Shown here: piece by piece, positions 6,617-22,070 of the stretch | Numbering within the stretch: the stretch's first letter is position 1 | How the letters are laid out: every line of letters starts with the position of its first letter | Made by a program: the position numbers and the translations under genes | The notes under the pieces: generated by a model | Told to the model about the DNA's origin: nothing | The model's database searches: none | What the model saw: the letters and a program-made list of their open reading frames with translations, nothing else | Assembly (NCBI GenBank): GCA_963728475.1 | Contig: CAVSKL010000001.1 | Coordinates: 1,550,001 to 1,614,000, forward strand | Length of the DNA stretch: 64,000 bases | Source of the DNA: CAVSKL01 sp963728475 [NCBI: Candidatus Eiseniibacteriota bacterium] | Lineage (GTDB): Bacteria; Eisenbacteria; RBG-16-71-46; JABDJR01 | Reading direction: 5' to 3'

Positions 6617-8026
6617 TCACTTCCGCTCGATCCCCAGCCGCCGCAGCTTGCGATGAAGGTTGGCCCGGTCGATGCCCAGGTTCCGGGCCGCCTGGCTCAC
6701 GTTGCCTCCGGAGCGGTTGAGCTCCGCCTCCAGGATCTCCTTCTCCGCCGCCTCCATGAGCTTCCTGAGCGCTCCCTCCTCGCCCGCCTCCACGTCCAGC
6801 TCCAGGTTGAGGTTCACTGTGGTTCCCTCGGCCCCGGACCCGGTCCCCAGGAGGGCGGCCACCTCGCGCGGCCCCAGCCGGTCCCGCGACGCCATGATCA
6901 CCAGCCGCTCCACCAGGTTCCGCAGTTCCCGCACATTCCCCGGCCAGGAGTAGCGGGAGAGGATGGCGACGGCTTCCGGGGTGAGATCCAGCCCAGGACG
7001 GCCGTACTCGCGGCGAAAGTAGGTCAGATAGTGCTCGACCAGGAGCGGCACGTCCTCGGACCGGTCGCGAAGGGGCGGCACGGTGATCGGGAGCACGTTC
7101 AACCGGTAGAAGAGGTCGCGGCGGAAGCGCCCCTCCGCCACCTCCTTTCCCAGGTCCTTGTTGGTGGCGGCGATGATGCGGGCGTCGAAGGAGAGGGTGC
7201 GGGTACCGCCCACCCGCTCGAACTCGTTGGACTCGAGCGCCCGCAGGAGCTTGGCCTGGGCCTCGAGGTTCATGTCTCCCACCTCGTCCAGGAAGAGGGT
7301 ACCGCCGTGGGCCAGCTCCAGCTTCCCCTGCTTCAGCGCCGAGGCCCCGGTGAACGCCCCCTTTTCGTGGCCGAAGAGTTCGCTCTCCACCAGGTCGCGG
7401 GGAATTGCCGCGCAGTTGAGGCGCACGAACGGGCCGTCGACGCGCGGGCTCAGGTCGTGAATGGCGCGGGCCACCAGCTCCTTTCCCACTCCGTTCTCGC
7501 CCAGGATGATCACCTTGGCCGGGGTGGGGGCGGCCCGGCGGATGGCCCCCCGCAGCTCCTCCATGCCCGCGCCCTCGCCCACCAGGCGGTGGAGCGCCCC
7601 GTGCTCCTCCTTCAGCACCCGGTTCTGGCGGCGGAGGGCAAACATCTGAAGCGCCCGGTCCACGGTCAGGGCCAGCCGCTCCGGGGTGAACCCCTTCTCC
7701 AGGAAGTCGAAGGCGCCCAGGCGCACCGCCTCCACCGCGAGCTCGATGGTGCCGTGGCCGCTCATCATGATCACCGGGAGATCCTGCGCGATCTCGGGAC
7801 GCCGCTTGAGAAAGGCCACCCCTTCCTCGCCGGGCATCCGGACGTCGAGCAGCACCAGGTCCACGGTCGCCCCGTCCCGGGCCAGCGCCTTCTCGGCGGT
7901 GGCGGTATCGGCGGACTGGAGCACCCGGTATCCCTCGTCGGTCAGGAACTCGGCCAGCGACTTCCGGATCCGCTCCTCGTCGTCCACGATGAGCACGGTG
8001 CGTTTCGGTTCGTCGGTCCCGCTCAT
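6617..8026 (-). CDS. NtrX/AtoC-type sigma-54-dependent response regulator
   Basis: 469 residues; the ATG at 8026 overlaps the kinase stop codon (ATGA). Domain order: receiver (residues 10-125) with acidic pair Asp15-Asp16, phospho-acceptor Asp61 in LLDVRMPG and the Lys of FDFLEKGF; AAA+ domain with Walker A GENGVGKE near 172, the sigma-54 contact loop GAFTGA, and Walker B GGTLFLDEVGD; and a Fis-type helix-turn-helix at the C-terminus (NVSQAARNLGIDRANLHRKL). All catalytic motifs are intact, so it should activate sigma-54 promoters once phosphorylated by the adjacent NtrY-like kinase. Such pairs control nitrogen or envelope-related genes in proteobacteria; the targets here are unknown. Confidence 0.92.
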   Translation of the reverse strand: MSGTDEPKRTVLIVDDEERIRKSLAEFLTDEGYRVLQSADTATAEKALARDGATVDLVLLDVRMPGEEGVAFLKRRPEIAQDLPVIMMSGHGTIELAVEAVRLGAFDFLEKGFTPERLALTVDRALQMFALRRQNRVLKEEHGALHRLVGEGAGMEELRGAIRRAAPTPAKVIILGENGVGKELVARAIHDLSPRVDGPFVRLNCAAIPRDLVESELFGHEKGAFTGASALKQGKLELAHGGTLFLDEVGDMNLEAQAKLLRALESNEFERVGGTRTLSFDARIIAATNKDLGKEVAEGRFRRDLFYRLNVLPITVPPLRDRSEDVPLLVEHYLTYFRREYGRPGLDLTPEAVAILSRYSWPGNVRELRNLVERLVIMASRDRLGPREVAALLGTGSGAEGTTVNLNLELDVEAGEEGALRKLMEAAEKEILEAELNRSGGNVSQAARNLGIDRANLHRKLRRLGIERK

Positions 8027-9570
8027 CCCGGCTCCTTCCCGTTCCCGGCGCGCACCGGGGGGTCCCCGGCCAGGGGGAGGCTCAGGATCACCCGGGCGCC
8101 CCCGCCCGCCCGCTCGTCCAGTTCCAGCGTACCCCCATGTTGGAGCAGTGTGCGCTGCACGATGCTGAGCCCGAGGCCGCTCCCCTGGTTCTTGGTGGTG
8201 AAATAGGGCTCGAGCGCGGAGTCGCGGGCCCCTTCCGGCCAGCCCGGCCCGTCGTCCTCCACGATGACCCGGGCGAGGGTAGCGGTCGCCTCCAGTTCGA
8301 TCCAGATGGTTCCCCCTCTCTCCATCGCCTCGGACGCGTTCTTGAGCACGTTGCCCAGGGCCTGCCGGAGCAGCGTCTTGTCCGCGTCCACCATCACCGG
8401 CCGGGGAGGCGGTTTCCACAGGATCCTCGTCCCTTCCAGACCTTCCGCCGAGGCCTCGATCACGCCGCGCAGGTCGACCGGGGCGAACTCCGCCACCGGC
8501 AACCGGGCCAGCTCGCTGAAGGAGGCGGCGAGCCGCTGGAGCCCCTCCACCTCGCCGAGCACGGTCTCGAGCGAGGCCTGGGCGCGTCCGGGCTCGGGGA
8601 GTTCGGGGGCGAGCTTCTTCAGCCGGTGGAGCGAGAAGGTGATGGGGGTGAGCGCGTTCTTCATCTCGTGGGCCACCCGGCGGGCCACCTCCTGCCACCC
8701 GGTCAGGCGCTCGGCCCGGGCCAGCGCCCGGCGGGAGCGCGACAGCTCCGCGCTCATGGCGTTGAAGGTGCGGATGAGCGCTTCCACCTCGGCGCTCCCC
8801 TCGGGGCGCACCCGGACCGACTCCTCGCCCCGTCTCACCCGTTCCATGCCGCGTCCCAGGTTCTCCACCGGCCGGCTCACCCGAACCGCCAGGCGCCGGG
8901 CGATCACGGTGGCCCCCACCGCCAGCCCCACCACCACCAGCGCCAGCCCCACCAGCACCGCCTTCTGGTTGACCCGTTTCAGCACTCCGAGCTGGCGGTA
9001 ATAGGCCACCCCCCGGGAAAGATCCTCGAGCCGGTTGAACAGGGCGGGGTCGAGGTAGATTCCGCTCACCAGGATCCACTCCGACTTCCCCGGCTCGCCC
9101 GCGTAACCCACGTAGGCGAGAAGCCCCCGGGACGGATCCTGGTAGAACGGATTGTCGGACCGGGCCAGGGCGCGCACGCCGGGAAGCCGTCCGGGGGGAG
9201 CGAGCAGGGTGTCGCGGGTGGCCTGGAACAGGAGCGTTCCGTCCAGGTCGTAGAGCTGGACGAAGTCCAGGTTGTAGGCGGTGGCGAGCCGGTCGCGCAC
9301 CGCGTCCTTCCGGCGGGGAGGTTCCAGCGCCTCATCCGCCCCCAGGAGCTGCCCGCGCTGGCGGAGGTCGTTCCGGGTCAGGTTCATGAGGTCCCGCGCC
9401 ACCTCCAGGCTCCCCTCCAGGGCCCTCTGGACCCCGGGATTCTCCCAGCGCTCGAGCGCGGCCAGGAGCCGGTGGGTGGAGATCACGGTGAGGGTGAGGG
9501 AAGGGACCAGGGTGAGCGCGAGGAAGATGAGGGTGAGCTGACCCTTGAGCGTCCTGGGCGGGAAGGCCAC
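8023..9570 (-). CDS. NtrY-like membrane sensor histidine kinase
   Basis: 515 residues. There is a first transmembrane helix at about 12-32 (LTLIFLALTLVPSLTLTVI), a periplasmic sensing region of about 180 residues, a second helix (AVLVGLALVVVGLAVGATVI), a HAMP-like linker (RLAVRVSRPVENLGRGMERV), a phospho-acceptor box RRVAHEMKNALTPI with the NtrY-type HEMKN sequence, and the ATP-binding N, G1 and G2 motifs (LGNVLKNASEAM, VEDDGPGWP, GSGLGLSIV). It lacks an obvious PAS domain between HAMP and the histidine box, unlike classic NtrY. It is cotranscribed with the regulator downstream and divergent from the 9895 gene. Confidence 0.9.
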   Translation of the reverse strand: MAFPPRTLKGQLTLIFLALTLVPSLTLTVISTHRLLAALERWENPGVQRALEGSLEVARDLMNLTRNDLRQRGQLLGADEALEPPRRKDAVRDRLATAYNLDFVQLYDLDGTLLFQATRDTLLAPPGRLPGVRALARSDNPFYQDPSRGLLAYVGYAGEPGKSEWILVSGIYLDPALFNRLEDLSRGVAYYRQLGVLKRVNQKAVLVGLALVVVGLAVGATVIARRLAVRVSRPVENLGRGMERVRRGEESVRVRPEGSAEVEALIRTFNAMSAELSRSRRALARAERLTGWQEVARRVAHEMKNALTPITFSLHRLKKLAPELPEPGRAQASLETVLGEVEGLQRLAASFSELARLPVAEFAPVDLRGVIEASAEGLEGTRILWKPPPRPVMVDADKTLLRQALGNVLKNASEAMERGGTIWIELEATATLARVIVEDDGPGWPEGARDSALEPYFTTKNQGSGLGLSIVQRTLLQHGGTLELDERAGGGARVILSLPLAGDPPVRAGNGKEPG

Positions 9571-13199: not shown

Positions 13200-13574
13200 A
13201 TGACCTCCAAGCGTCTCGGCTTCGCAATTTTCATCCTGGCAGCGGCCTGGAGCGTGGCTGGACTCAATTGGTTCGCTCCGGCGGTCGCGCATGCTCCGCG
13301 CTCGCCGCTCTTGATCGGCACCGCGCAGGCCGGTGAGGGGGACTGCACTTTCGGGTCCGTCTTTACCGTCAACTCGACGGGCGACCCGGACCAGTACGCC
13401 AACAGCGCCACCCCCGCCGGGGATCCCGATCAGTACGCAAACGGGGCCGATTCCACCGCCACGAACAGCGGATCGGGCTCCGGGGGCTCGAGTTCCAGGG
13501 GCGGCTCGACGATCAAGGTGGTGATTCAGATCGCCTCTTCCATCCTGGGAGGCGCATGCGGGTTCGTTCGCTAG
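13200..13574 (+). CDS. Small secreted protein with GDPDQYAN repeat, unknown function
   Basis: 124 residues. An N-terminal signal peptide (FAIFILAAAWSVAGL... ending at AVAHA) is followed by a short segment with one Cys (GEGDCTFG). Two exact copies of GDPDQYAN come next, separated by SATPA, then a Ser/Gly-rich linker (SGSGSGGSSSRGGS) and a hydrophobic C-terminal tail, TIKVVIQIASSILGGACGFVR without its last residues being charged except Arg. The two cysteines (one in each half) could form a disulfide. The plan of signal, repeat, flexible linker and amphipathic tail resembles small secreted or surface-anchored peptides. I do not recognise the family. It lies 76 bases before the TPR sigma-54 activator gene and may be its partner or target. 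Confidence 0.6.
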   Translation: MTSKRLGFAIFILAAAWSVAGLNWFAPAVAHAPRSPLLIGTAQAGEGDCTFGSVFTVNSTGDPDQYANSATPAGDPDQYANGADSTATNSGSGSGGSSSRGGSTIKVVIQIASSILGGACGFVR

Positions 13575-13650: not shown

Positions 13651-16600
13651 GTGAACCGTTCGAGCAAGTCGGAACGGCGGCCGCGCGGGGTGACCCGCGC
13701 CCGCCGGGACGAGGAGTGGCAGGAGTTGCCCGAAGCGGTGAAGTACGGCGACGTCTGCTATCAGGCGGAGCGCTATGCGGACGCCCTCGAGGCTTACACC
13801 CGGGCGGTGGAGGCGCCGTCCGCCCGGAAGCTCCCCCCCGAGCTGCGCGCCCGGCTCCACTACCGGCTGGCCAGCTGCTACCAGCGCCGCTCCAACTACC
13901 GTCTCGCCCTGGAGCAGCTCGACCTGGCCCGCCGCGTGCTTCCGCGCCACCTGGACAAGGTGCGGCTGGCCAAGATCTACGCCCGTCGCGGCAGCATCAT
14001 GCAGGAGATGGGGCAATACGACCGGGCCGAGCGGTATCTGCTCTGGGCGCGAAAGCTCCTGAGCGGCACCAACGAGCACGAGGAGCTGGCCGCGATCGAG
14101 ACCGATCTCGGCACCATCTTTGCCCGCCGCGGGCAGACCGTCGAAGCCCGGCAGGGCTTCCTGAACGCGCTGGCCACCTACCGCCGGATCGGCGACGTGG
14201 GGGGCGAGGCCAAGTCGCTCAATAACTTGGGCCTCCAGTACAAGAACGGCTGCGAATGGCGCGAGGCGGTCCGCTATCTGGAAGAGGCCCGGGGGCTGTT
14301 CGAGCGGATCGGCCACCGCCAGCACCTGGTCACCACCCATCTCAACCTGGGCATCGTCCACTTCAAGCTCGGCAAGTGGGAGCTGTGCGAGGAGAACCTC
14401 GCCGCCGCCGAACGGCTGGCCCGGGAACTCTCCTGGACGCAGGCGCTGGTCCGGATCCAGCTCGCCCAGGGGAATCTGAACCTTCGCCGGCGCGCCTGGG
14501 ACGAGGCCGCCCGCCTCTACCGCGAGGCGAGCAGGGTGGCCCGCGCCGAGGGCTTCGGCCGCGAGTCCATCCTGGCCCAGGAGTTCCTGGGCGAGCTCTC
14601 GGTGGACATGGGCGAGGCCGATCGCGCCGCCGAGATTCTCGAGGTCTGCCTGGAGGAGGCGCGTACCGTCGCCCCCGACGGCGACATGGTGAACGAGACC
14701 CTGCGGCGCCTCGCCGAGGCGCGACTGGCCCAGGGGCGGGCCGAAGAGGCGCTCCACTACGCCAAGGAGGCGGCGGCCTCGGCCAGCCGGATCGGCGACC
14801 GCTACGAAGAGGCGGTGGCGCTCCGGGTGGTGGGGTTGGCCATGCTGCGGATGGGGGATCGCGAGGAGGGCGAGCGTCTGGTGTCCATGAGCCTCGAGGC
14901 CCTGGGCGACATCGGCGAGTCCTACCAGAAGGGCGTGACCCATCTCGAGTACGGCCGCTTCCTGGCCGAGTCCGCGCGCGAATCCCGCGCGGTGGACGAA
15001 CTGGAACGCGCGGGGGTGCAGCTTCAGCGGGCCTACGGGGCCTTCCTGGACCTGGACGCCCGGGTCCAGGCCGCCACCGGCGCCTACGAGCGGGCGTCCC
15101 TGGAGGCGGTGTTCCAGCGATTCGAGGAGGCGGCGGCGTTCCGGGCCAAGGCCCGGCAGGTGCTTCCCGCCGGCCGGGATCCCGAACTCGAGCGTCGGTT
15201 GACCGCCCTCGGCGCCGAACTCGAGGACGCGTTCGCCGAGCGCTGGTCCTCGGGCGGGGACGTCCTCGCCTCCCTCCGCGAGATGAAGCGCCTGTTCCAG
15301 GGCGCCACCGACACCGAGGGGGTGCTGCAGGAGCTCATCCGCCTCGCCGCCACCCGCTCCGGATCCAGCCGGGGTTGCGTGGCCCACGCCACCGGAAACG
15401 GCGGCATCCGGGTGGTGGCCACCTTCGGCTGGAAGCAGGACGAGGCATCCGCGCTGCTCCAGACCATGGGCCCGGCGCTCTCGGCCGCGCTGGAGGAGAA
15501 CCGGCCGGTCTGGAGCAACAACGCGGCCGAGGACTCCCGCTTCAGCATGGTGAGCCGGGACCAGCGTTTCCGGACCCGGAGCTTCGTGCTCTTTCCGCTC
15601 ATCCTGACCGAGGAGAAGCCCGGACTCCTCTACGTGGACAAGACCCAGGACAACCTGGAAGGCGCCTATCACCAGGGCGAGTTCCATCTCCTCACCATCC
15701 TGGCCAATCTGGCCGGCCTCTCCATCATGGAGCGCTGGAACTCGCGGCTCATCCGCGAGAACGAGGAACTCCGCGCCCGCATCGCCCTCGGCGAGGGCGA
15801 GGACCGGTTCGTGACCGCCAATCCCCAGCTCAAGGAGACCCTGCGGCTGGTGAGCAAGGTGGCCAACAGCCCGGTGTCGATCCTCATCGAAGGGGAGACC
15901 GGGACCGGGAAGGGCCTGCTGGTCCAGGTCATCCACGAGGCCTCGAACCGGCGCGACAAGCCCTTCGTGCAGATCAACTGCGCCGCGCTCCCCGAACCCC
16001 TCCTGGAGAGCGAGCTCTTCGGCCATGTGAAGGGCGCGTTCACCGGCGCCACCTACAACAAGGTGGGCCTGTTCAAGGAAGCCGAGAACGGCACCATCTT
16101 CCTGGACGAGGTGGACAAGACCAGCCTGGCGGTGCAGGCCAAGCTGCTCCACGTGATGGATTCCAAGGAAGTGCGCCCGGTGGGGTCGGTCAAGCCCTAT
16201 CGCGTGGATACCCGGGTCATCTGCGCCACCAACTCCAACCTCCGGGAGCGCATCCGCTCCGGCGAGTTCCTGGAGGACCTCTACTACCGGCTCAACGATT
16301 TCATCATCACCGTGCCGCCGCTGCGCGACCGGCGCGAGGACCTTCCGCTTCTGATCGACTACTTCCTCAAGAAGTTCTGCCAGCAGTACGGGCGGAACGA
16401 GGTGGCGCTCACCGCCGAGGTGCGGAGGGTGCTGCTCGACCACCACTGGCCGGGCAACGTTCGCGAGCTGGAGAAGACCATCCGGCGCCTGGTGGTGCTG
16501 GCCGACGAGGAGCTGCCGGTGGGGCTCGACCTGTTGCCGGTGGAAATCCAGACCGAGAAGCCCAGCTTCCGCGGGCGGACCCTGCGCGAGGAGGTGGGGC

Positions 16601-16740
16601 GCACCGAGCGCCGGGTGATTTCCGATGCGTTGCGCGCCAACGGCTGGAACAAGGCGCAGGTGGCTCGCATCCTGAAGGTGTCCTACCCGTGTCTCCTGAA
16701 GAAGATCAAGGAATTCAACCTCGAGCGGCCTTCCGACTAG
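13651..16740 (+). CDS. TPR-GAF-AAA+ sigma-54-dependent transcriptional activator
   Basis: 1029 residues from GTG 13651 (GAGGG 9 bases upstream). Residues 25-530 are a run of about a dozen tetratricopeptide repeats (for example YQAERYADALEAYTRAVE, LNNLGLQYKNGCEWREAVRYL). A GAF domain lies at about 555-715. The AAA+ domain has Walker A GETGTGKG near 748, the sigma-54 loop GAFTGA near 794, and Walker B GTIFLDEVDK. A Fis-type HTH closes the protein (KAQVARILKVSYPCLLKKI). There is no receiver domain, so it is probably controlled through the TPR or GAF part by a protein or small-molecule signal. The next gene downstream has a near-consensus sigma-54 promoter with inverted repeats upstream, making it the obvious target. 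Confidence 0.92.
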   Translation: MNRSSKSERRPRGVTRARRDEEWQELPEAVKYGDVCYQAERYADALEAYTRAVEAPSARKLPPELRARLHYRLASCYQRRSNYRLALEQLDLARRVLPRHLDKVRLAKIYARRGSIMQEMGQYDRAERYLLWARKLLSGTNEHEELAAIETDLGTIFARRGQTVEARQGFLNALATYRRIGDVGGEAKSLNNLGLQYKNGCEWREAVRYLEEARGLFERIGHRQHLVTTHLNLGIVHFKLGKWELCEENLAAAERLARELSWTQALVRIQLAQGNLNLRRRAWDEAARLYREASRVARAEGFGRESILAQEFLGELSVDMGEADRAAEILEVCLEEARTVAPDGDMVNETLRRLAEARLAQGRAEEALHYAKEAAASASRIGDRYEEAVALRVVGLAMLRMGDREEGERLVSMSLEALGDIGESYQKGVTHLEYGRFLAESARESRAVDELERAGVQLQRAYGAFLDLDARVQAATGAYERASLEAVFQRFEEAAAFRAKARQVLPAGRDPELERRLTALGAELEDAFAERWSSGGDVLASLREMKRLFQGATDTEGVLQELIRLAATRSGSSRGCVAHATGNGGIRVVATFGWKQDEASALLQTMGPALSAALEENRPVWSNNAAEDSRFSMVSRDQRFRTRSFVLFPLILTEEKPGLLYVDKTQDNLEGAYHQGEFHLLTILANLAGLSIMERWNSRLIRENEELRARIALGEGEDRFVTANPQLKETLRLVSKVANSPVSILIEGETGTGKGLLVQVIHEASNRRDKPFVQINCAALPEPLLESELFGHVKGAFTGATYNKVGLFKEAENGTIFLDEVDKTSLAVQAKLLHVMDSKEVRPVGSVKPYRVDTRVICATNSNLRERIRSGEFLEDLYYRLNDFIITVPPLRDRREDLPLLIDYFLKKFCQQYGRNEVALTAEVRRVLLDHHWPGNVRELEKTIRRLVVLADEELPVGLDLLPVEIQTEKPSFRGRTLREEVGRTERRVISDALRANGWNKAQVARILKVSYPCLLKKIKEFNLERPSD

Positions 16741-16762
16741 GCTTCTTTCCCGCACGAATGCC

Positions 16763-16779
16763 TATCAAATGATTTGATA
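16763..16779. promoter_or_regulatory. Perfect inverted repeat, candidate enhancer site for the sigma-54 activator
   Basis: TATCAAA-TGA-TTTGATA, a 7-3-7 perfect dyad about 170 bp upstream of the -24/-12 promoter. The flanking CCTATCAA (16761-16768) also recurs as its complement TTGATAGG at 16840-16847. Bacterial enhancer-binding proteins of this class bind such dyads at this distance. Binding by the activator encoded just upstream is inferred. Confidence 0.5.
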
Positions 16780-16780
16780 C

Positions 16781-16814
16781 ACCCAACCCATTGAAATGAT
16801 TGGGTTTGGGTTTT
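16781..16814 (+). terminator. Rho-independent terminator of the TPR activator gene
   Basis: ACCCAACCCA (16781-16790) pairs with 16801-16811 with one bulged T around a 10-base loop, followed by TTTT. It lies 40 bases after the stop codon. Confidence 0.65.
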
Positions 16815-16942
16815 CCCACCCGATTCGCTGTGAACTCCGTTGATAGGTGCGGTTCCCAAGGTGCCTCCGCGCCGCCTCCATCCTGCCGACCCCCCCGCTG
16901 AAACGCAACGAGTTACAGCGATTTCGGGGCGATCCGCGTCTC

Positions 16943-16958
16943 TGGCACAAGGTCTGCA
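16943..16958 (+). promoter_or_regulatory. Sigma-54 (-24/-12) promoter of the AAA ATPase gene
   Basis: TGGCAC-AAGGT-CTGCA: the -24 box is a perfect consensus and the GG-N10-GC spacing is exact; only one T of the -12 box differs. Transcription should start near 16969, giving a 150-base leader before ATG 17120. Confidence 0.7.
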
Positions 16959-17119
16959 TTGGACATCCTGCGGAGGGGGGACCTCCAGAGCCGACTGCCG
17001 TCGGGTTCCAAGGACGACGATCCTGCTTCGTAGTTGACACCACCGGACTTGGAACCCGATGCGGCGGCTTCGCTGCCGAACCCGGCCGACGTCCGTCCCT
17101 AGTGAGGCAGAACGACACC

Positions 17120-18586
17120 ATGCGCCGCGAGTCGACTCAGGCCTACCGGGATCAGTTCGAGTATCTCGCGGACTGTTTCGACCTGGTGCGCAAGCGCGGC
17201 GACGCCTACAACATCCGGACCGAGGCGCTCGAGACCGAGCGGATGGCGCTCTACAGCGAGCGAAACGGGTTCGACTCCGACCGGAGCCAGCTTCTGGAGA
17301 TCTACCGCGGCATCGAAGGCGAGGTGGACCGGAAGCTCGGCCAGATCCAGGCGCGCCGGCACGACACCGAGGAGCTGGGAGCGCGATTCCCCCTCGATCA
17401 GTTCGCCGAACGGTACCGGCTCCATCCCGAGGAGGTCGACATCCTCCTCGTTCTTCTCTACAACGAGTCGGTGGGCCGGAGCCACGCCCGGTTCACCTCC
17501 GGCAACGAGATCCTCAACCTGCTTTTCCCCAACCCGGTGAGCGCGCTCAAGGCCTCCCGGTTCCTAGACGTGGGGGCGACGCTCCTACAGGAAGGGCTGA
17601 TCAGGTCCATTTCCGATGACGACGGCTCCAACTTCTTGAGGGCTGCCTACGAAGTCACGGAAAAGACCCTGCACGAGGTGCTGGGAGTTCGCGATCGCAG
17701 CTCCATAAGGGATCCGCAGCACGTCTCCCGCACTTCCAGCAGTCCTCTCGACAGCCCTTACCGGGTCGTCGCCCCCCGTATTCGCCTGGAGCAGGTGGTG
17801 CTTTCCCCCGCCATCCGCCGCCGCCTGGAGGAGGTCCTCTGGCAGGCGGACGAAGGCCGGACCCTGTTCGCGGAATGGGGTCTGGACGAGGTGGTGGAGA
17901 AGGGGAAGGGCACCGTCGTGCTCCTGTCGGGTCCTCCCGGGACCGGGAAGACCATGACCGCGGAGGCGGTGGCCGAGCGACTGGGCCGTCCGCTCTACAT
18001 CGCCGACTATGCCCAGCTCGAGAGCAAGTGGATCGGCGAGACCGAGAAGAACATCGTGAGCGTGTTCCGCTCCGCGGCCGAGGCCGACGCCGTCCTTCTC
18101 CTGGATGAGGTCGACGCCATCCTGGCCGCCCGGATGGACGGGGGTCATTACAACGAGCGCGCCTACAACCGGCAGGTGAGCATCCTGCTCGGCGAGCTGG
18201 AGGCGTTCGAAGGGACCTGCATCCTCACCACCAACCGCAAGGTTTCCCTGGACGAGGGGCTGGCGCGCCGGATCGCGGGGGTGTTCGAGTTCGAGATCCC
18301 CGGACCCGCGGAGCGCATACGGATCTGGGAACGTCTGGTGCCGGCCCGCATGCCCCTGGCCGGGGACGTGAACCTCGAGGAACTTGCCCGCTGCTGGCCC
18401 ATGGCCGGCGGGCACATCAAGAATGCCGTCCTCGGCGCGGTCCGCAAGGCCGCGGTTCGGGACGGCAGGCGCGCGCACGTGACCCAGCGCGATCTCATGG
18501 AGGCGGCGGCGGCCGAACAGGATAGCTTCCGCCCGTGTTCCCGACCCATCGGGTTCGGAGACTCTCCGGCCGTCTCCTATTCGTGA
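17120..18586 (+). CDS. AAA+ ATPase (single C-terminal AAA module)
   Basis: 488 residues from ATG 17120; the frame is open back to 16847 but that would include the promoter. The N-terminal 200 residues are helical and charged (RDQFEYLADCFDLVRKRGD, EEVDILLVLLYNESVGRSHARF) and match no domain I can name. The AAA module follows: Walker A GPPGTGKT near 270, KWIGETEKN pore-region segment, Walker B LLLDEVDAI near 325, sensor 1 TTNRK, and an arginine-finger-like ARRI. This resembles the FtsH/SpoVK/Cdc48-like remodelling class, and ATPases of contractile injection systems look similar, but no injection-system genes are nearby. Being alone behind a sigma-54 promoter suggests stress- or signal-dependent use. 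Confidence 0.8.
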   Translation: MRRESTQAYRDQFEYLADCFDLVRKRGDAYNIRTEALETERMALYSERNGFDSDRSQLLEIYRGIEGEVDRKLGQIQARRHDTEELGARFPLDQFAERYRLHPEEVDILLVLLYNESVGRSHARFTSGNEILNLLFPNPVSALKASRFLDVGATLLQEGLIRSISDDDGSNFLRAAYEVTEKTLHEVLGVRDRSSIRDPQHVSRTSSSPLDSPYRVVAPRIRLEQVVLSPAIRRRLEEVLWQADEGRTLFAEWGLDEVVEKGKGTVVLLSGPPGTGKTMTAEAVAERLGRPLYIADYAQLESKWIGETEKNIVSVFRSAAEADAVLLLDEVDAILAARMDGGHYNERAYNRQVSILLGELEAFEGTCILTTNRKVSLDEGLARRIAGVFEFEIPGPAERIRIWERLVPARMPLAGDVNLEELARCWPMAGGHIKNAVLGAVRKAAVRDGRRAHVTQRDLMEAAAAEQDSFRPCSRPIGFGDSPAVSYS

Positions 18587-18643: not shown

Positions 18644-19016
18644 CGTGCCGGGGCACGGGCCCCGGCCGGCGGAGCCCGACGGGTCCGAGTGTCTGCGGAC
18701 GGTCGGGTCTCCTTCCCGGCGCCCGGGGGACGAAAGCCGGCCCCCTTGCGCCAGGTGGAGGTGCAAGAGAGGGGAAGAGGGTCATAACGAGCGCAGGCCT
18801 TCTTCTCCGGCTATCCCTCCCCGTCTCCGGACGGGGACTGAACGGGACGTGATGGACGTCCCGGCGGACAGGCGGAACCTGCAAAGGTTCCGTTCGCGAG
18901 ACCGGTTCCTGGTACGCAGACCATATATGGGGGATGTCCAGGCTCGTGCCATGGAGTTCCCGGTCTTTCGGACGAAAGGCGCGGCGCCGGACTTCAGTCC
19001 GGCGTCGCGTTCTTTT
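18644..19016 (+). ncRNA. Candidate structured RNA: array of hairpins ending in a terminator
   Basis: Successive inverted repeats are CGTGC at 18644 with GCACG ending 18657; CCCGA/GTCCG with CGGAC/TCGGG (18675-18707); CTTGCGCC with GGTGCAAG (18745-18767) inside a CCCC/GGGG clamp; CCCCGTC-TCCG-GACGGGG (18819-18836); GGGACGT-N5-ACGTCCC (18844-18862); CGGAACCT-GCAA-AGGTTCCG (18873-18892); CTTTCG-GA-CGAAAG (18965-18978); and CGCCGGACT-TC-AGTCCGGCG (18985-19004) followed by TTCTTTT. It does not show the conserved sequences of RNase P RNA, tmRNA, 6S or SRP RNA. The strand is chosen from the terminator. Chance hairpins are common at this GC content, so confidence is low. Confidence 0.35.
18985..19016 (+). 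terminator. Rho-independent terminator
   Basis: CGCCGGACT (18985-18993) and AGTCCGGCG (18996-19004) are perfect complements (effective stem 8 bp with a 4-base loop), followed a few bases later by TTCTTTT (19010-19016). It would end either the AAA ATPase message or an RNA from the hairpin region. Confidence 0.6.
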
Positions 19017-19248: not shown

Positions 19249-20160
19249 ATGCAGGAACCGACCGCCGCGCCCCCAGCGCCTCCCCCCCGCAAGCCCTATC
19301 CCGGCATCGCCCAGGCCTTCCTGCTCCTTCTCTTGTTGTGGGGGGCCATGGTCGTCCTCCAGGCGGGGGTGATGGCGGTGCACCTGATCGGGCACCCGGA
19401 AGCGCTCCGCCACCTCTTGGAGCAGGGAGGGGACCAGGGGCTCCCGCTGGTGCCCATGCTCCTGATCGGGAACACCGGGGCGTTTCTTCTGGTGCTCTTG
19501 CTGGGCTCGAAGCTCAGCCGCTCGAGCCTGGCCGGGATCTTCCCCTTTCACTTCCGCGCCGGCTACGTCCTCGTCTTCCTCACCCTGATTCCCGCCTGCG
19601 CGGGAGGCGCCACCCTCATCTCCGAACTCGACAACGTGATCCGGACGGTCCTCCCCCCCGGGCTCCGCGACTTCATGGGGGCGCTCGACCGGAGCATGTT
19701 CGACATGATCCGCCACTCCTACTGGCCGGCGGTGGCGGCGCTGGTGATCATGGCTCCCCTGACCGAGGAACTCTTCTTCCGCGGGCTCCTCCTCCACGGG
19801 TTCCGGCTGCGCTACGGACGGACCAAGGCCATGGTCGCCTCGGCCGCGTTCTTCTCGCTCGCCCATCTCACCCCCAACCAGCTCATCCCCGCCTTCCTGG
19901 CCGGGATCTTCCTGGCCTGGCTCCTCCTCGAGACCCGGAGCCTGTGGCTGACCCTGTTCACCCACGCGGTCTTCAACGGCACCGCCGCCATCTCGGTGGG
20001 GCTCGCGCTCCGTTCCGGCCAGCTCGAACCCCCCCTCACCCCGGCCCTCAACCCCTGGTACGTGGACCTGGGGGCGCTGGTGGTGATGGGGATCGGGCTC
20101 GCGGCGACCGTCCTGGTGGTCCGCCGCCTCCCCTCCGAGGCCTCGGTGCGGGAGGTGTAG
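19249..20160 (+). CDS. CPBP-family intramembrane metalloprotease
   Basis: 303 residues with a proline-rich cytoplasmic start and about eight transmembrane helices. The three motifs of the CPBP (CAAX protease/Abi) family are present: EExxxR as TEELFFRG near residue 171, FxxxH as FFSLAH, and HxxxN as HAVFN. Bacterial members cleave within the membrane, process peptides or sense envelope state; the substrate here is unknown. It has its own promoter and no ribosome binding site worth the name, consistent with leaderless translation. Confidence 0.85.
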   Translation: MQEPTAAPPAPPPRKPYPGIAQAFLLLLLLWGAMVVLQAGVMAVHLIGHPEALRHLLEQGGDQGLPLVPMLLIGNTGAFLLVLLLGSKLSRSSLAGIFPFHFRAGYVLVFLTLIPACAGGATLISELDNVIRTVLPPGLRDFMGALDRSMFDMIRHSYWPAVAALVIMAPLTEELFFRGLLLHGFRLRYGRTKAMVASAAFFSLAHLTPNQLIPAFLAGIFLAWLLLETRSLWLTLFTHAVFNGTAAISVGLALRSGQLEPPLTPALNPWYVDLGALVVMGIGLAATVLVVRRLPSEASVREV

Positions 20161-20290: not shown

Positions 20291-20306
20291 TGGCACCGCC
20301 CTTGCT
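20291..20306 (+). promoter_or_regulatory. Consensus sigma-54 (-24/-12) promoter
   Basis: TGGCAC-CGCCC-TTGCT matches the sigma-54 consensus at every conserved position with exact GG-N10-GC spacing. Transcription should start near 20317, 80 bases before ATG 20398, leaving room for the GGGAGG ribosome binding site. Confidence 0.8.
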
Positions 20307-20397
20307 CAATGGGAACGGTGAGCCCGCGGCCCGGCGATCGGACGATCCGCCGGGCAGCGCTCCCAGCCGGGAGCGCGGGGCGGAAAGGGAGGCGGCA

Positions 20398-21249
20398 ATG
20401 ACCCGGTCGACAAGGAACATGCGGCGCACACTGGGACTCGGCGCGGCGGCGGTGGGTTTGGCGGTGGGGCTGGCCACGCTCTCCGGCTGCGAGGACTGGA
20501 CGGTGCAGCCGGGTTGCGCCCAGGCCCCGCACGCCCCGGTGGACGTCTACTCGGTCACCGGTGACGGCGAGGTGTTCCTGTACTGGACGCCGGTGGACGG
20601 GGCACGGGTGGACTACTTCGTGGTCTATCGCTCTCCCCGGGCCAACGGCACCTACACCGAGGTCGGGCACAGCCGCGACGACGGTTTCACCGATCACGGG
20701 CTCGAGAACGGCCGCACCTACTACTACGCGGTGACCGCGGTGAACCGGTGCGGCGACGAATCGGACTTGAGCCGCGAGGTGGTCCACGACACCCCCCGGC
20801 CGGAGGGTTTCGGGGCGGTGATCCGGGATGCCGGTGGGCCCTATCCCGATCGGAGCGGCTGGCAGTTCAGCGACTACCGCGCGGTTCCCTGGGATTACGC
20901 CGGCGCCGACGTGTACTTCATCGTGTCGGACGGGACGCCCTATCTGGTGGCCACCGACACCGACACCGACATTCAGGATGCGGGATACGTGGACTTCGAC
21001 ACCGTGGACTGGGCGCCCGACGGGGGCTGGAGCCCCACCGGGACGGTGGAGGTGGTCCCCGGGCACACCTACGTGGTGTGGACTCGGAACGACCATTTCG
21101 CCAAGGTCCACGCGACCTCGGCGGACGGCGGGGTGTTGCGCTTCGATTGGGGCTACCAGGTGGACCGCGGGAATCCGGAGCTGGGCCCGCGGCCGCCCCG
21201 GGAGACCGTTCCCCAGGGGCTTCGCCCCGGAACGGGAGTGGTCTCGTGA
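20398..21249 (+). CDS. Lipoprotein with fibronectin type III domain
   Basis: 283 residues from ATG 20398, 7 bases after GGGAGG; the longer frame upstream would run through the sigma-54 promoter. The signal peptide ends in a lipobox LSGC near residue 31, so the protein is lipid-anchored. Residues about 47-130 are a fibronectin type III fold (PVDVYSVTGDGEVFLYWTPV, VDYFVVYRSPRANGTYTEVG, LENGRTYYYAVTAVN). The remaining 150 residues are a beta-rich Asp/Trp/Tyr-containing domain (YVDFDTVDWAPDGGWSPTG) I do not recognise. It is followed 65 bases later by the DUF4384 gene, probably in the same operon and therefore under sigma-54 control. Confidence 0.8.
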   Translation: MTRSTRNMRRTLGLGAAAVGLAVGLATLSGCEDWTVQPGCAQAPHAPVDVYSVTGDGEVFLYWTPVDGARVDYFVVYRSPRANGTYTEVGHSRDDGFTDHGLENGRTYYYAVTAVNRCGDESDLSREVVHDTPRPEGFGAVIRDAGGPYPDRSGWQFSDYRAVPWDYAGADVYFIVSDGTPYLVATDTDTDIQDAGYVDFDTVDWAPDGGWSPTGTVEVVPGHTYVVWTRNDHFAKVHATSADGGVLRFDWGYQVDRGNPELGPRPPRETVPQGLRPGTGVVS

Positions 21250-21314: not shown

Positions 21315-22070
21315 ATGAAAACCCGACGCATCTCCATCCTCGGCGGATCGGTCCTGGCGGCCTTCGCGCTCGCCTCCGTCGCTCTCGCGGTTCCCGCGTT
21401 CGCGGGGAGCGTGGCCCCGGCGGCGAGCCGGGTGGAAGCGACGGTGGTCCCGGTGGGGCAGGGCACCTACGCCCCCGACCTCGTCCGGGTTCCGGTCGGC
21501 CGCGACCTGGACGTGCAGGTGTGGACCGACGCCGGTGACGGCGGCCTGGTCCGGATCGGCGAGACCATGAACGTGAACTTCCGGACCAGCCGTGACGCCT
21601 ACGTGGCGGTCTACGACATTGATCCCGCCGGAAACGCCCGGCTTCTCTTTCCCGAGGATCCGCGTGACGACGGGTACGTGCGCGGCGGCCGCACCGTGAG
21701 CCTGCCCGGGCGCGGCGCCGGTTACCGGCTCATGGTGACCGGCCCCTCCGGCAGCGAGCGGATCGTGGCGGTGGCCTCCGACCGGCCGCTGGCCGGCCGG
21801 TGGCGCGAGTTCGCCGAGGAGGACCTCCGGGACGCCTCCTACCGGGGCGCGGACCGCGGTCGCCGCTCCTACGCGGTGGGCGTGGGCGCGGTGCTCGATT
21901 CCCGCGGCGGCCCCACCGTGAACGTCCACGGCGTCGTCCGCTCCGACTCCCGTCTGGCTCCGGTCTCGCCGCAGCTGGTCCGGGTGCCGGTTCGGGACGC
22001 GGTGTCCCGCGACGAGACCTGGTTCGAGGTCACGGCCTCCCGAGGCCGGGGCGGCCGGCACGGCCGGTAG
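21315..22070 (+). CDS. Secreted DUF4384 protein
   Basis: 251 residues from ATG 21315 with GAAGGGAG upstream. There is a signal peptide (SILGGSVLAAFALASVALAVPAFA), then a DUF4384 domain: VWTDAGDGGLVRIGETMNV, NFRTSRDAYVAVYDIDPAGNARLLFP and YRLMVTGPSGSERIVAVAS. DUF4384 domains often accompany bacterial signalling or caspase-like proteins but have no known activity. The C-terminal part is Arg-rich and ends in RGRGGRHGR. A strong terminator follows at 22192, closing the fn3-DUF4384 operon. Confidence 0.78.
   Translation: MKTRRISILGGSVLAAFALASVALAVPAFAGSVAPAASRVEATVVPVGQGTYAPDLVRVPVGRDLDVQVWTDAGDGGLVRIGETMNVNFRTSRDAYVAVYDIDPAGNARLLFPEDPRDDGYVRGGRTVSLPGRGAGYRLMVTGPSGSERIVAVASDRPLAGRWREFAEEDLRDASYRGADRGRRSYAVGVGAVLDSRGGPTVNVHGVVRSDSRLAPVSPQLVRVPVRDAVSRDETWFEVTASRGRGGRHGR

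What the first reader, a model, noticed from the sequence alone, without database searches (positions are those of the whole stretch)
16740..17120. Complete sigma-54 control unit: activator gene, enhancer-like dyads, terminator and -24/-12 promoter
Seen: directly after the TPR-GAF-AAA+ activator gene come a 7-3-7 perfect dyad (16763-16779), a second copy pair CCTATCAA/TTGATAGG (16761, 16840), a terminator, and TGGCAC-AAGGT-CTGCA (16943-16958). An AAA ATPase gene follows as the only downstream gene. Established: enhancer-binding proteins bind dyads 80-200 bp upstream of such promoters. Inference: the TPR/GAF sensor switches on an AAA remodelling ATPase, a dedicated and possibly undescribed stress or signalling module. 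By rough count fewer than one such promoter match would be expected by chance in 64 kb, and there are three.
Basis: partly seen in the sequence, partly recalled or inferred. Interest (0 to 1): 0.8.

Follow-up and report, generated by a model that had tools for sequence, protein, structure and literature searches.

The report
Sigma-54 switch for structured regulatory RNA
Beside a sensor gene kept across an uncultured bacterial phylum lies a switchable promoter whose conserved product appears to be an uncatalogued structured RNA, rather than the ATPase gene that rides inside that RNA in this genome.

Summary
The observed parts are real: the 7-3-7 dyad (16763-16779), the activator gene (13651-16740) and the -24/-12 box (16943-16958). 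Comparison supports function. The dyad (8 of 10 or better) precedes the promoter in 39 of 45 loci, the window included, against 2.9 expected; 44 of 45 keep GG-N10-GC. But the AAA gene is not the conserved output: it lies there only in the window and L001. Of 40 relatives' activator loci, 38 have enough downstream sequence; in all 38 the promoter is followed by a structured RNA that begins near +4 with a hairpin, GGAGG-(G-rich)A-CCUCC in 35 and a changed form in 3. Many versions end in a terminator hairpin capped by UGGGGGAUGUCC, with strong covariation (18 of 28 pairs changed on both sides, 0 of 500 shuffles). The window carries both ends (16972-16986, 18899-18966) with the AAA gene between them. 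Rfam shows no match. The layout works like CbrB-CrcZ. That CsrA is the RNA's partner is a guess: 5 of 46 genomes lack the GGA-loop hairpin and all 5 lack CsrA (p=0.0009, uncorrected for descent). Hfq: 0 of 47.

The parts
13651..16740 (+). Activator: TPR repeats, GAF, sigma-54 AAA+ domain, Fis-type HTH
   Evidence: Pfam; near-full-length relatives at 33-43% identity in most of 47 phylum genomes; HTH helix SYPxLL or SYPTVL in 41 of 41 aligned, window included
16763..16779 (.). Perfect 7-3-7 dyad, predicted activator site 1
   Evidence: template TATNAAN5TTNATA matched 10/10 here; conserved upstream of the promoter
16782..16814 (+). Weak terminator-like hairpin after the activator gene
   Evidence: pairs in the fold; not listed by the scan
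16829..16845 (.). Imperfect 7-3-7 dyad, predicted activator site 2
   Evidence: 9/10 to the template; counterpart in L001
16943..16958 (+). -24/-12 (sigma-54) promoter; predicted +1 near 16969
   Evidence: GG-N10-GC in 44 of 45 loci
16972..16986 (+). P1: 5' hairpin GGAGG-GGGGA-CCUCC of the RNA
   Evidence: GGA-loop form in 42 of 45 loci, altered in 3 (loci were selected for a P1 form)
16988..17070 (+). P2: long leader hairpin
   Evidence: fold z -3.17; 7 of 34 pairs compensated between the window and L001 over the whole leader
17120..18586 (+). AAA ATPase gene with N-terminal winged-helix domain, carried inside the RNA unit
   Evidence: Pfam PF22977 + PF00004; L001 orthologue 58%
18899..18966 (+). 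3' domain: hairpin capped by AUGGGGGAUGUCCAGGCU
   Evidence: fold -31.0 kcal/mol; R1 match 18897-18968, 35.7 bits (the window sequence was in the model's training set); covariation
18980..19016 (+). Second GC-rich hairpin followed by TTCTTTT, likely terminator
   Evidence: sequence read; not tested by a tool
20291..20306 (+). Second sigma-54 promoter, upstream of the Fn3-domain gene
   Evidence: conserved position
20398..21249 (+). Fn3-domain protein with lipoprotein-like N-terminus, conserved neighbour
   Evidence: Pfam fn3; found downstream of the RNA in 37 other loci

Best explanation
The TPR-GAF enhancer-binding protein binds one or two TATnAA-N5-TTnATA dyads just behind its own gene and, on an unknown signal, drives sigma-54 RNA polymerase at TGGCAC-AAGGT-CTGCA. 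The conserved product is a structured regulatory RNA that starts near 16969 with the P1 hairpin (loop ending in GGA). In the window's lineage the RNA also carries the AAA gene as a passenger reading frame and ends at the capped terminator hairpin 18899-18966. Shown here by sequence: the conserved order, dyads, promoter, P1, compensatory changes in the 3' hairpin, absence of a shared reading frame. Inferred: that the activator binds these dyads, that the RNA is made from this promoter as one transcript, and that it acts as a regulatory RNA. Least certain: that its GGA loops act through CsrA (I put this at about 0.3).
For: Of 40 fetched activator loci, 38 have enough downstream sequence and all 38 show the hairpin after a -24/-12 box: 37 by pattern, L162 by eye. 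Dyads of 8/10 or better in 39 of 45 regions against 2.9 in shuffles, 10/10 in 12 against 0.0. Activator recognition helix SYPxLL/SYPTVL in 41 of 41. Essentially one P1 copy per genome at this locus. 3' hairpin: 18 of 28 pairs changed on both sides with all 27 sequences, 19 of 28 with 22, 0 of 500 shuffles in both. R1 finds one copy in each of 24 of 47 genomes, on the P1 contig. No shared ORF: at most 5 of 21 type-A RNAs share a start column. No Rfam match. CsrA link: [[33,8],[0,5]], p=0.00094; Hfq in 0 of 47.
Against: No transcript, footprint or mutant data. The first, untrimmed alignment of the 3' domain gave only 10 consensus pairs at -4.2 kcal/mol; the strong result needed trimmed ends and a structure I drew from member folds. 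The 3' cap is not universal: 27 of 45 loci by motif plus L148 by model; L170 is weak, L001 ends before it, 15 lack it. P1's stem hardly varies, so it gives almost no covariation. Against CsrA: GGA in loops is enriched in few of ten RNAs tested (0/30 and 2/30 shuffles for two; 6-23 of 30 for the rest); 8 genomes with P1 have no CsrA hit; P1's five-pair GC stem is stronger than most SELEX sites (PMC7652899); the association is not corrected for descent or incomplete assemblies.
Confidence: 0.85

Rival explanations
1. One reading: the unit is a dedicated stress or signalling module in which the activator switches on the AAA ATPase; the leader and 3' hairpin are just the mRNA's untranslated regions.
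For: In the window and L001 the AAA gene follows the promoter, and the leader is conserved between them.
Against: The same promoter and 5' hairpin occur in 44 other-genome loci counting L001, and only L001 has the AAA gene. Both RNA ends are kept where no AAA gene lies between them.
Confidence: 0.07
2. The RNA is a cis-acting leader or attenuator (riboswitch-like) controlling read-through into the neighbouring Fn3-domain gene.
For: The Fn3-domain gene follows the RNA in 37 loci besides the window; the RNA ends in a terminator-like hairpin; 7 of 38 loci have no detectable promoter of its own.
Against: 31 of 38 loci have a separate TGGCAY-N6-TGC box upstream of that gene (0.2 expected), so read-through is not needed there. 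In the window the gene is about 1.4 kb beyond the terminator with another gene between.
Confidence: 0.12
3. The transcript encodes a short conserved peptide rather than acting as RNA.
For: L148 carries a 125-aa reading frame inside the RNA, and the window carries the AAA gene.
Against: No start column is shared by more than 5 of 21 type-A RNAs; type-B RNAs are short and fold almost end to end; hairpin bases covary.
Confidence: 0.04
4. Chance: promoter-like and dyad-like strings without function.
For: The looser promoter consensus is no commoner than chance in the window.
Against: Conserved order and spacing across the phylum; dyads 39 of 45 against 2.9.
Confidence: 0.01

Closest known systems
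CbrB-CrcZ of Pseudomonas (activator gene followed by a sigma-54 RNA)
   Same: crcZ lies downstream of cbrAB as a separate unit, depends on sigma-54 and is activated by CbrB (PMC8871633, passages).
   Different: CbrB is a response regulator binding non-palindromic subsites (PMC6296734, passages); here a TPR-GAF protein and palindromic dyads. CrcZ acts on Crc/Hfq; Hfq was found in 0 of 47 genomes here. No reading frame inside CrcZ is known to me (recalled).
LuxO-Qrr1 of Vibrio
   Same: An enhancer-binding protein drives a sigma-54 small RNA (PMC10162802, one passage and listing); neighbouring genes (recalled).
   Different: Qrr RNAs pair with mRNAs through Hfq (recalled); no Hfq here and the RNA's structure is different.
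GlrR-GlmY of enterobacteria
   Same: Sigma-54 small RNA under an enhancer-binding protein encoded nearby (recalled).
   Different: Different RNA, different sensor; GlmY is a decoy for RapZ (abstract start).
Csr/Rsm sponge RNAs (CsrB, RsmZ)
   Same: Hairpin loops holding GGA; the 3' cap nACAyUGGGGGAUGU resembles the CsrA SELEX consensus RUACARGGAUGU (PMC7652899, passages).
   Different: Only one or two conserved GGA loops, not the many of CsrB; general enrichment not found; CsrA not found in 8 genomes that have P1.

Membership tests
Sigma-54 promoter with enhancer-binding protein | GG-N10-GC (-24/-12) element | tested here: met
   16943-16958; 44 of 45 loci, exception L178
Sigma-54 promoter with enhancer-binding protein | Upstream palindromic activator sites | tested here: met
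   39 of 45 at 8/10 or better against 2.9 expected
Sigma-54 promoter with enhancer-binding protein | Activator with sigma-54 AAA+ domain and HTH | tested here: met
   PF00158 and PF02954
Sigma-54 promoter with enhancer-binding protein | Transcription lost without rpoN or the activator | not testable with these tools
   needs a culture or a reporter
Activator-adjacent sigma-54 regulatory RNA (CbrB-CrcZ kind) | Noncoding transcript beside its activator gene | tested here: inconclusive
   Order and RNA-like conservation shown; transcript not measured
CrcZ family | Acts by binding Hfq/Crc | tested here: not met
   Hfq family PF17209 in 0 of 47 genomes
Csr/Rsm sponge RNA | Many GGA motifs in hairpin loops | tested here: not met
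   Loop-GGA enrichment not general in ten RNAs
Csr/Rsm sponge RNA | CsrA present in the same genomes | tested here: inconclusive
   34 of 47; [[33,8],[0,5]] with P1
Any Rfam family | Covariance-model match | tested here: not met
   No gathering-score match in the window or 7 loci; only weak, implausible ones at lax thresholds
IetA anti-phage ATPase | Match above curated score and partner protease IetS | tested here: not met
   NF042959 100 bits against cut-off 510; neighbours are the RNA 3' domain and an Rce1-like gene

The most novel reading that the evidence does not exclude
A phylum-wide, sigma-54-switched regulatory RNA, probably a CsrA antagonist in bacteria without Hfq, whose middle is an open slot between fixed 5' and 3' RNA domains: most lineages fill it with RNA structure, one with an AAA ATPase gene, another with a small membrane or secreted protein gene, so that one transcript would be both regulatory RNA and mRNA.
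Probability: 0.2. Interest if true: 0.85.

Novelty: new variant of a known kind. Interest (0 to 1): 0.7.

Why it matters
If true, an entire uncultured phylum keeps, next to one near-universal sensor, an RNA that is in no catalogue searched here. It gives Eisenbacteria a concrete, testable regulatory circuit (signal, activator, sites, promoter, RNA), shows that the activator-beside-its-RNA design arose outside proteobacteria, and offers a case of protein genes lodged inside a regulatory RNA unit. It also corrects a natural misreading: the gene after a promoter is not always what the promoter is for.

Tried and rejected
AAA gene as the purpose of the unit: rejected by synteny. Known RNA family: Rfam at gathering score gave nothing in the window and 7 loci; lax searches gave microRNA-like and similar chance matches. 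CsrB-like sponge with many sites: loop-GGA counting in ten RNAs, 30 shuffles each, showed no general enrichment. Hfq-dependent RNA: no Hfq in 47 genomes. Short peptide: no shared reading frame. Same activator also driving the Fn3-domain gene through the same dyad: 0 of 31 upstream regions reach 8/10, so that promoter may answer to another activator or to the distant dyads. Spread beyond Eisenbacteria: promoter-plus-P1 pattern in 0 of 395 genomes of the phylum of L061 (titled Gemmatimonadaceae), 0 of 5 other-phylum genomes (one of these five is again in the 395), 0 viral contigs; other phyla were not searched. A simple regular expression wrongly reported no P1 anywhere; it was mis-written and replaced. 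The first 3'-domain alignment (A2, 27 sequences) gave a poor consensus. I then trimmed ends and first used 22 of 27 (dropping L144, L169, L172, L176, L179 as hard to align), and later repeated the count with all 27. L170 was left out of A3 (20 of 21 type-A loci). L178 was left out of the 3'-domain set.

Papers: passages only for PMC6296734, PMC8871633, PMC7652899 and PMC10162802; other titles were seen as listings. Searches for Eisenbacteria with noncoding RNA, sRNA and sigma-54 gave 1, 0 and 0 papers; the one was not opened.

Full report
What was claimed and what is there. The finding reports an activator gene, dyads, a terminator and a -24/-12 promoter at 16740-17120, followed by an AAA ATPase gene. 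All named strings are at the stated coordinates, and Pfam confirms the activator's TPR, GAF, sigma-54 AAA+ and HTH domains and the AAA gene's winged-helix and AAA domains. Inside the window alone the promoter statistic is fragile: the strict pattern occurs 2 times against 0.09 expected, the looser consensus 4 times against 2.7. The terminator is weak.

Taking it to relatives. No genome is held for the window. One scan of 84,980 genomes with the AAA protein gave a close relative, L001, a 3,450-base contig titled Candidatus Eisenbacteria. It has the same order: activator end, two dyads, TGGCACAGGCTATGCA, then the AAA gene at 58% identity. The leader between promoter and start codon is unexpectedly similar and folds better than shuffles in both (z -3.17 and -2.17), with 7 of 34 consensus pairs changed on both sides between the two.

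The turn. L001's genome gave access to 47 genomes of its phylum. Near-full-length relatives of the activator at 33-43% identity are in most of them, but an AAA orthologue is in only one, L001's own genome. I fetched 40 activator loci. Two end within 77 bases of the activator (L143, L174). In the other 38 the activator is followed by a -24/-12 box and then the hairpin: 37 found by pattern and L162 by eye. Five more loci were chosen because they hold the hairpin pattern; four of these show part of the activator beside it and the fifth, L200, starts at a contig end. With the window and L001 this makes 45 loci. Of these, 44 have GG-N10-GC, with the hairpin starting 6-14 nt after the box; the exception is L178. 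The hairpin is GGAGG-(G-run)A-CCUCC in 42; in L152, L153 and L162 it is changed and its loop has no GGA.

Enhancer sites. A template read from the dyads (TATNAA-N5-TTNATA) was sought between the activator's stop and the promoter, or in the 170-220 bases before the promoter where the stop was not located. Of 45 regions, 39 match at 8/10 or more (2.9 expected from 50 shuffles each), 26 at 9/10 (0.24) and 12 at 10/10 (0.0). The template was derived from members of this set, so the size of the excess is somewhat favoured, but the shuffles get the same search. The activator's recognition helix reads SYP in 41 of 41 sequences.

The RNA. The hairpin pattern GGAGGGGGN{0,4}ACCTCC occurs in 42 of 47 genomes, nearly always once with the long G-run and at this locus; short-G-run extra matches exist, for example in a coding region of G002, and the reversed control matches sometimes. 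After the hairpin come clade-specific structured bodies: type A (21 loci), type B (8 loci, about 130 nt, folding almost end to end) and others. In 27 of 45 loci, plus L148 by model, the RNA ends in a long hairpin capped by UGGGGGAUG, usually followed by a T-rich stretch. Its stem covaries: with all 27 sequences 18 of 28 pairs changed on both sides, score 0.305 against 0.178 in shuffles, 0 of 500; with 22 sequences 19 of 28, 0.340 against 0.180. A model of it finds one copy in each of 24 of 47 genomes, always on the contig that carries the hairpin P1. The remaining loci lack the cap (type B, type C, L171, L175, L178, L202), show it weakly (L170, 22 bits) or end too early (L001). No reading frame start is shared by more than 5 of 21 type-A RNAs. 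Rfam has no match.

The window's version. Besides P1 at 16972-16986 the window has the 3' domain at 18899-18966, after the AAA gene, with the string AUGGGGGAUGUCCAGGCU shared with L159 and L169 and a -31.0 kcal/mol hairpin. The model match there, 35.7 bits, is partly circular because the window was in the training set. So the AAA gene lies between the two ends of the RNA. L148 shows a second case: a 125-aa frame with a ribosome-binding-site-like string lies between the type-A body and the 3' domain; Pfam gives only a sub-threshold match.

The neighbour. An Fn3-domain gene with a lipoprotein-like start follows the RNA in 37 loci besides the window. In 31 of 38 a TGGCAY-N6-TGC box lies upstream (0.2 expected), among them the window's 20291 match. 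None of those 31 has the activator's dyad within 200 bases upstream at 8/10, so whether the same activator drives it is open.

How it may work. The design matches CbrB-CrcZ, where an enhancer-binding protein gene is followed by a sigma-54 RNA that it activates (PMC8871633 and PMC6296734, passages). For the partner I considered Hfq, found in 0 of 47 genomes while the control genomes rang as expected, and CsrA, found in 34 of 47. Both conserved loops end in or hold GGA, and the 3' cap resembles the CsrA SELEX consensus (PMC7652899, passages). Five genomes lack the GGA-loop hairpin (G002, G013, G014, G015, G046; G011 could not be judged) and all five lack CsrA, while 33 of 41 with the hairpin have it (p=0.00094). 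G013 is a single contig of 2.69 million bases. Three of the five are one clade and two lack the activator orthologue altogether, so this is closer to two or three independent events than five. Against CsrA: no general excess of loop GGA, a strong P1 stem, and eight hairpin-bearing genomes without a CsrA hit. I put the CsrA step at about 0.3.

Verdict. The sigma-54 unit is real and widely conserved; its conserved output is an uncatalogued structured RNA; the AAA gene is a passenger in one lineage.

Noticed in passing
L148:6341-6718 (minus strand): A 125-aa frame with a hydrophobic N-terminus lies inside the RNA between the type-A body and the 3' domain, a second protein gene lodged in this RNA.
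   Followed up: partly
window 20291-21249: Sigma-54 promoter plus Fn3-domain lipoprotein-like gene, conserved downstream of the RNA in 37 other loci; its promoter lacks the activator's dyad.
   Followed up: partly
window 13200-13574: A 124-aa frame with a signal-peptide-like start and a repeated GDPDQYAN stretch just upstream of the activator; no Pfam, NCBIfam or PADLOC match.
   Followed up: no
47 genomes of the phylum of G001: No Hfq (PF17209) match in any of 47 genomes; CsrA in 34 of 47, absent from the single-contig genome G013.
   Followed up: partly
window 19249-20160: Rce1-like CAAX protease gene between the RNA's end and the Fn3-domain gene in the window.
   Followed up: no
window 6617-9570 (minus strand): What reads like an NtrC-type response regulator and a histidine kinase, another possible sigma-54 pair; judged by eye, no domain search.
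   Followed up: no
window 21339-22070: DUF4384 protein gene next to the Fn3-domain gene.
   Followed up: no
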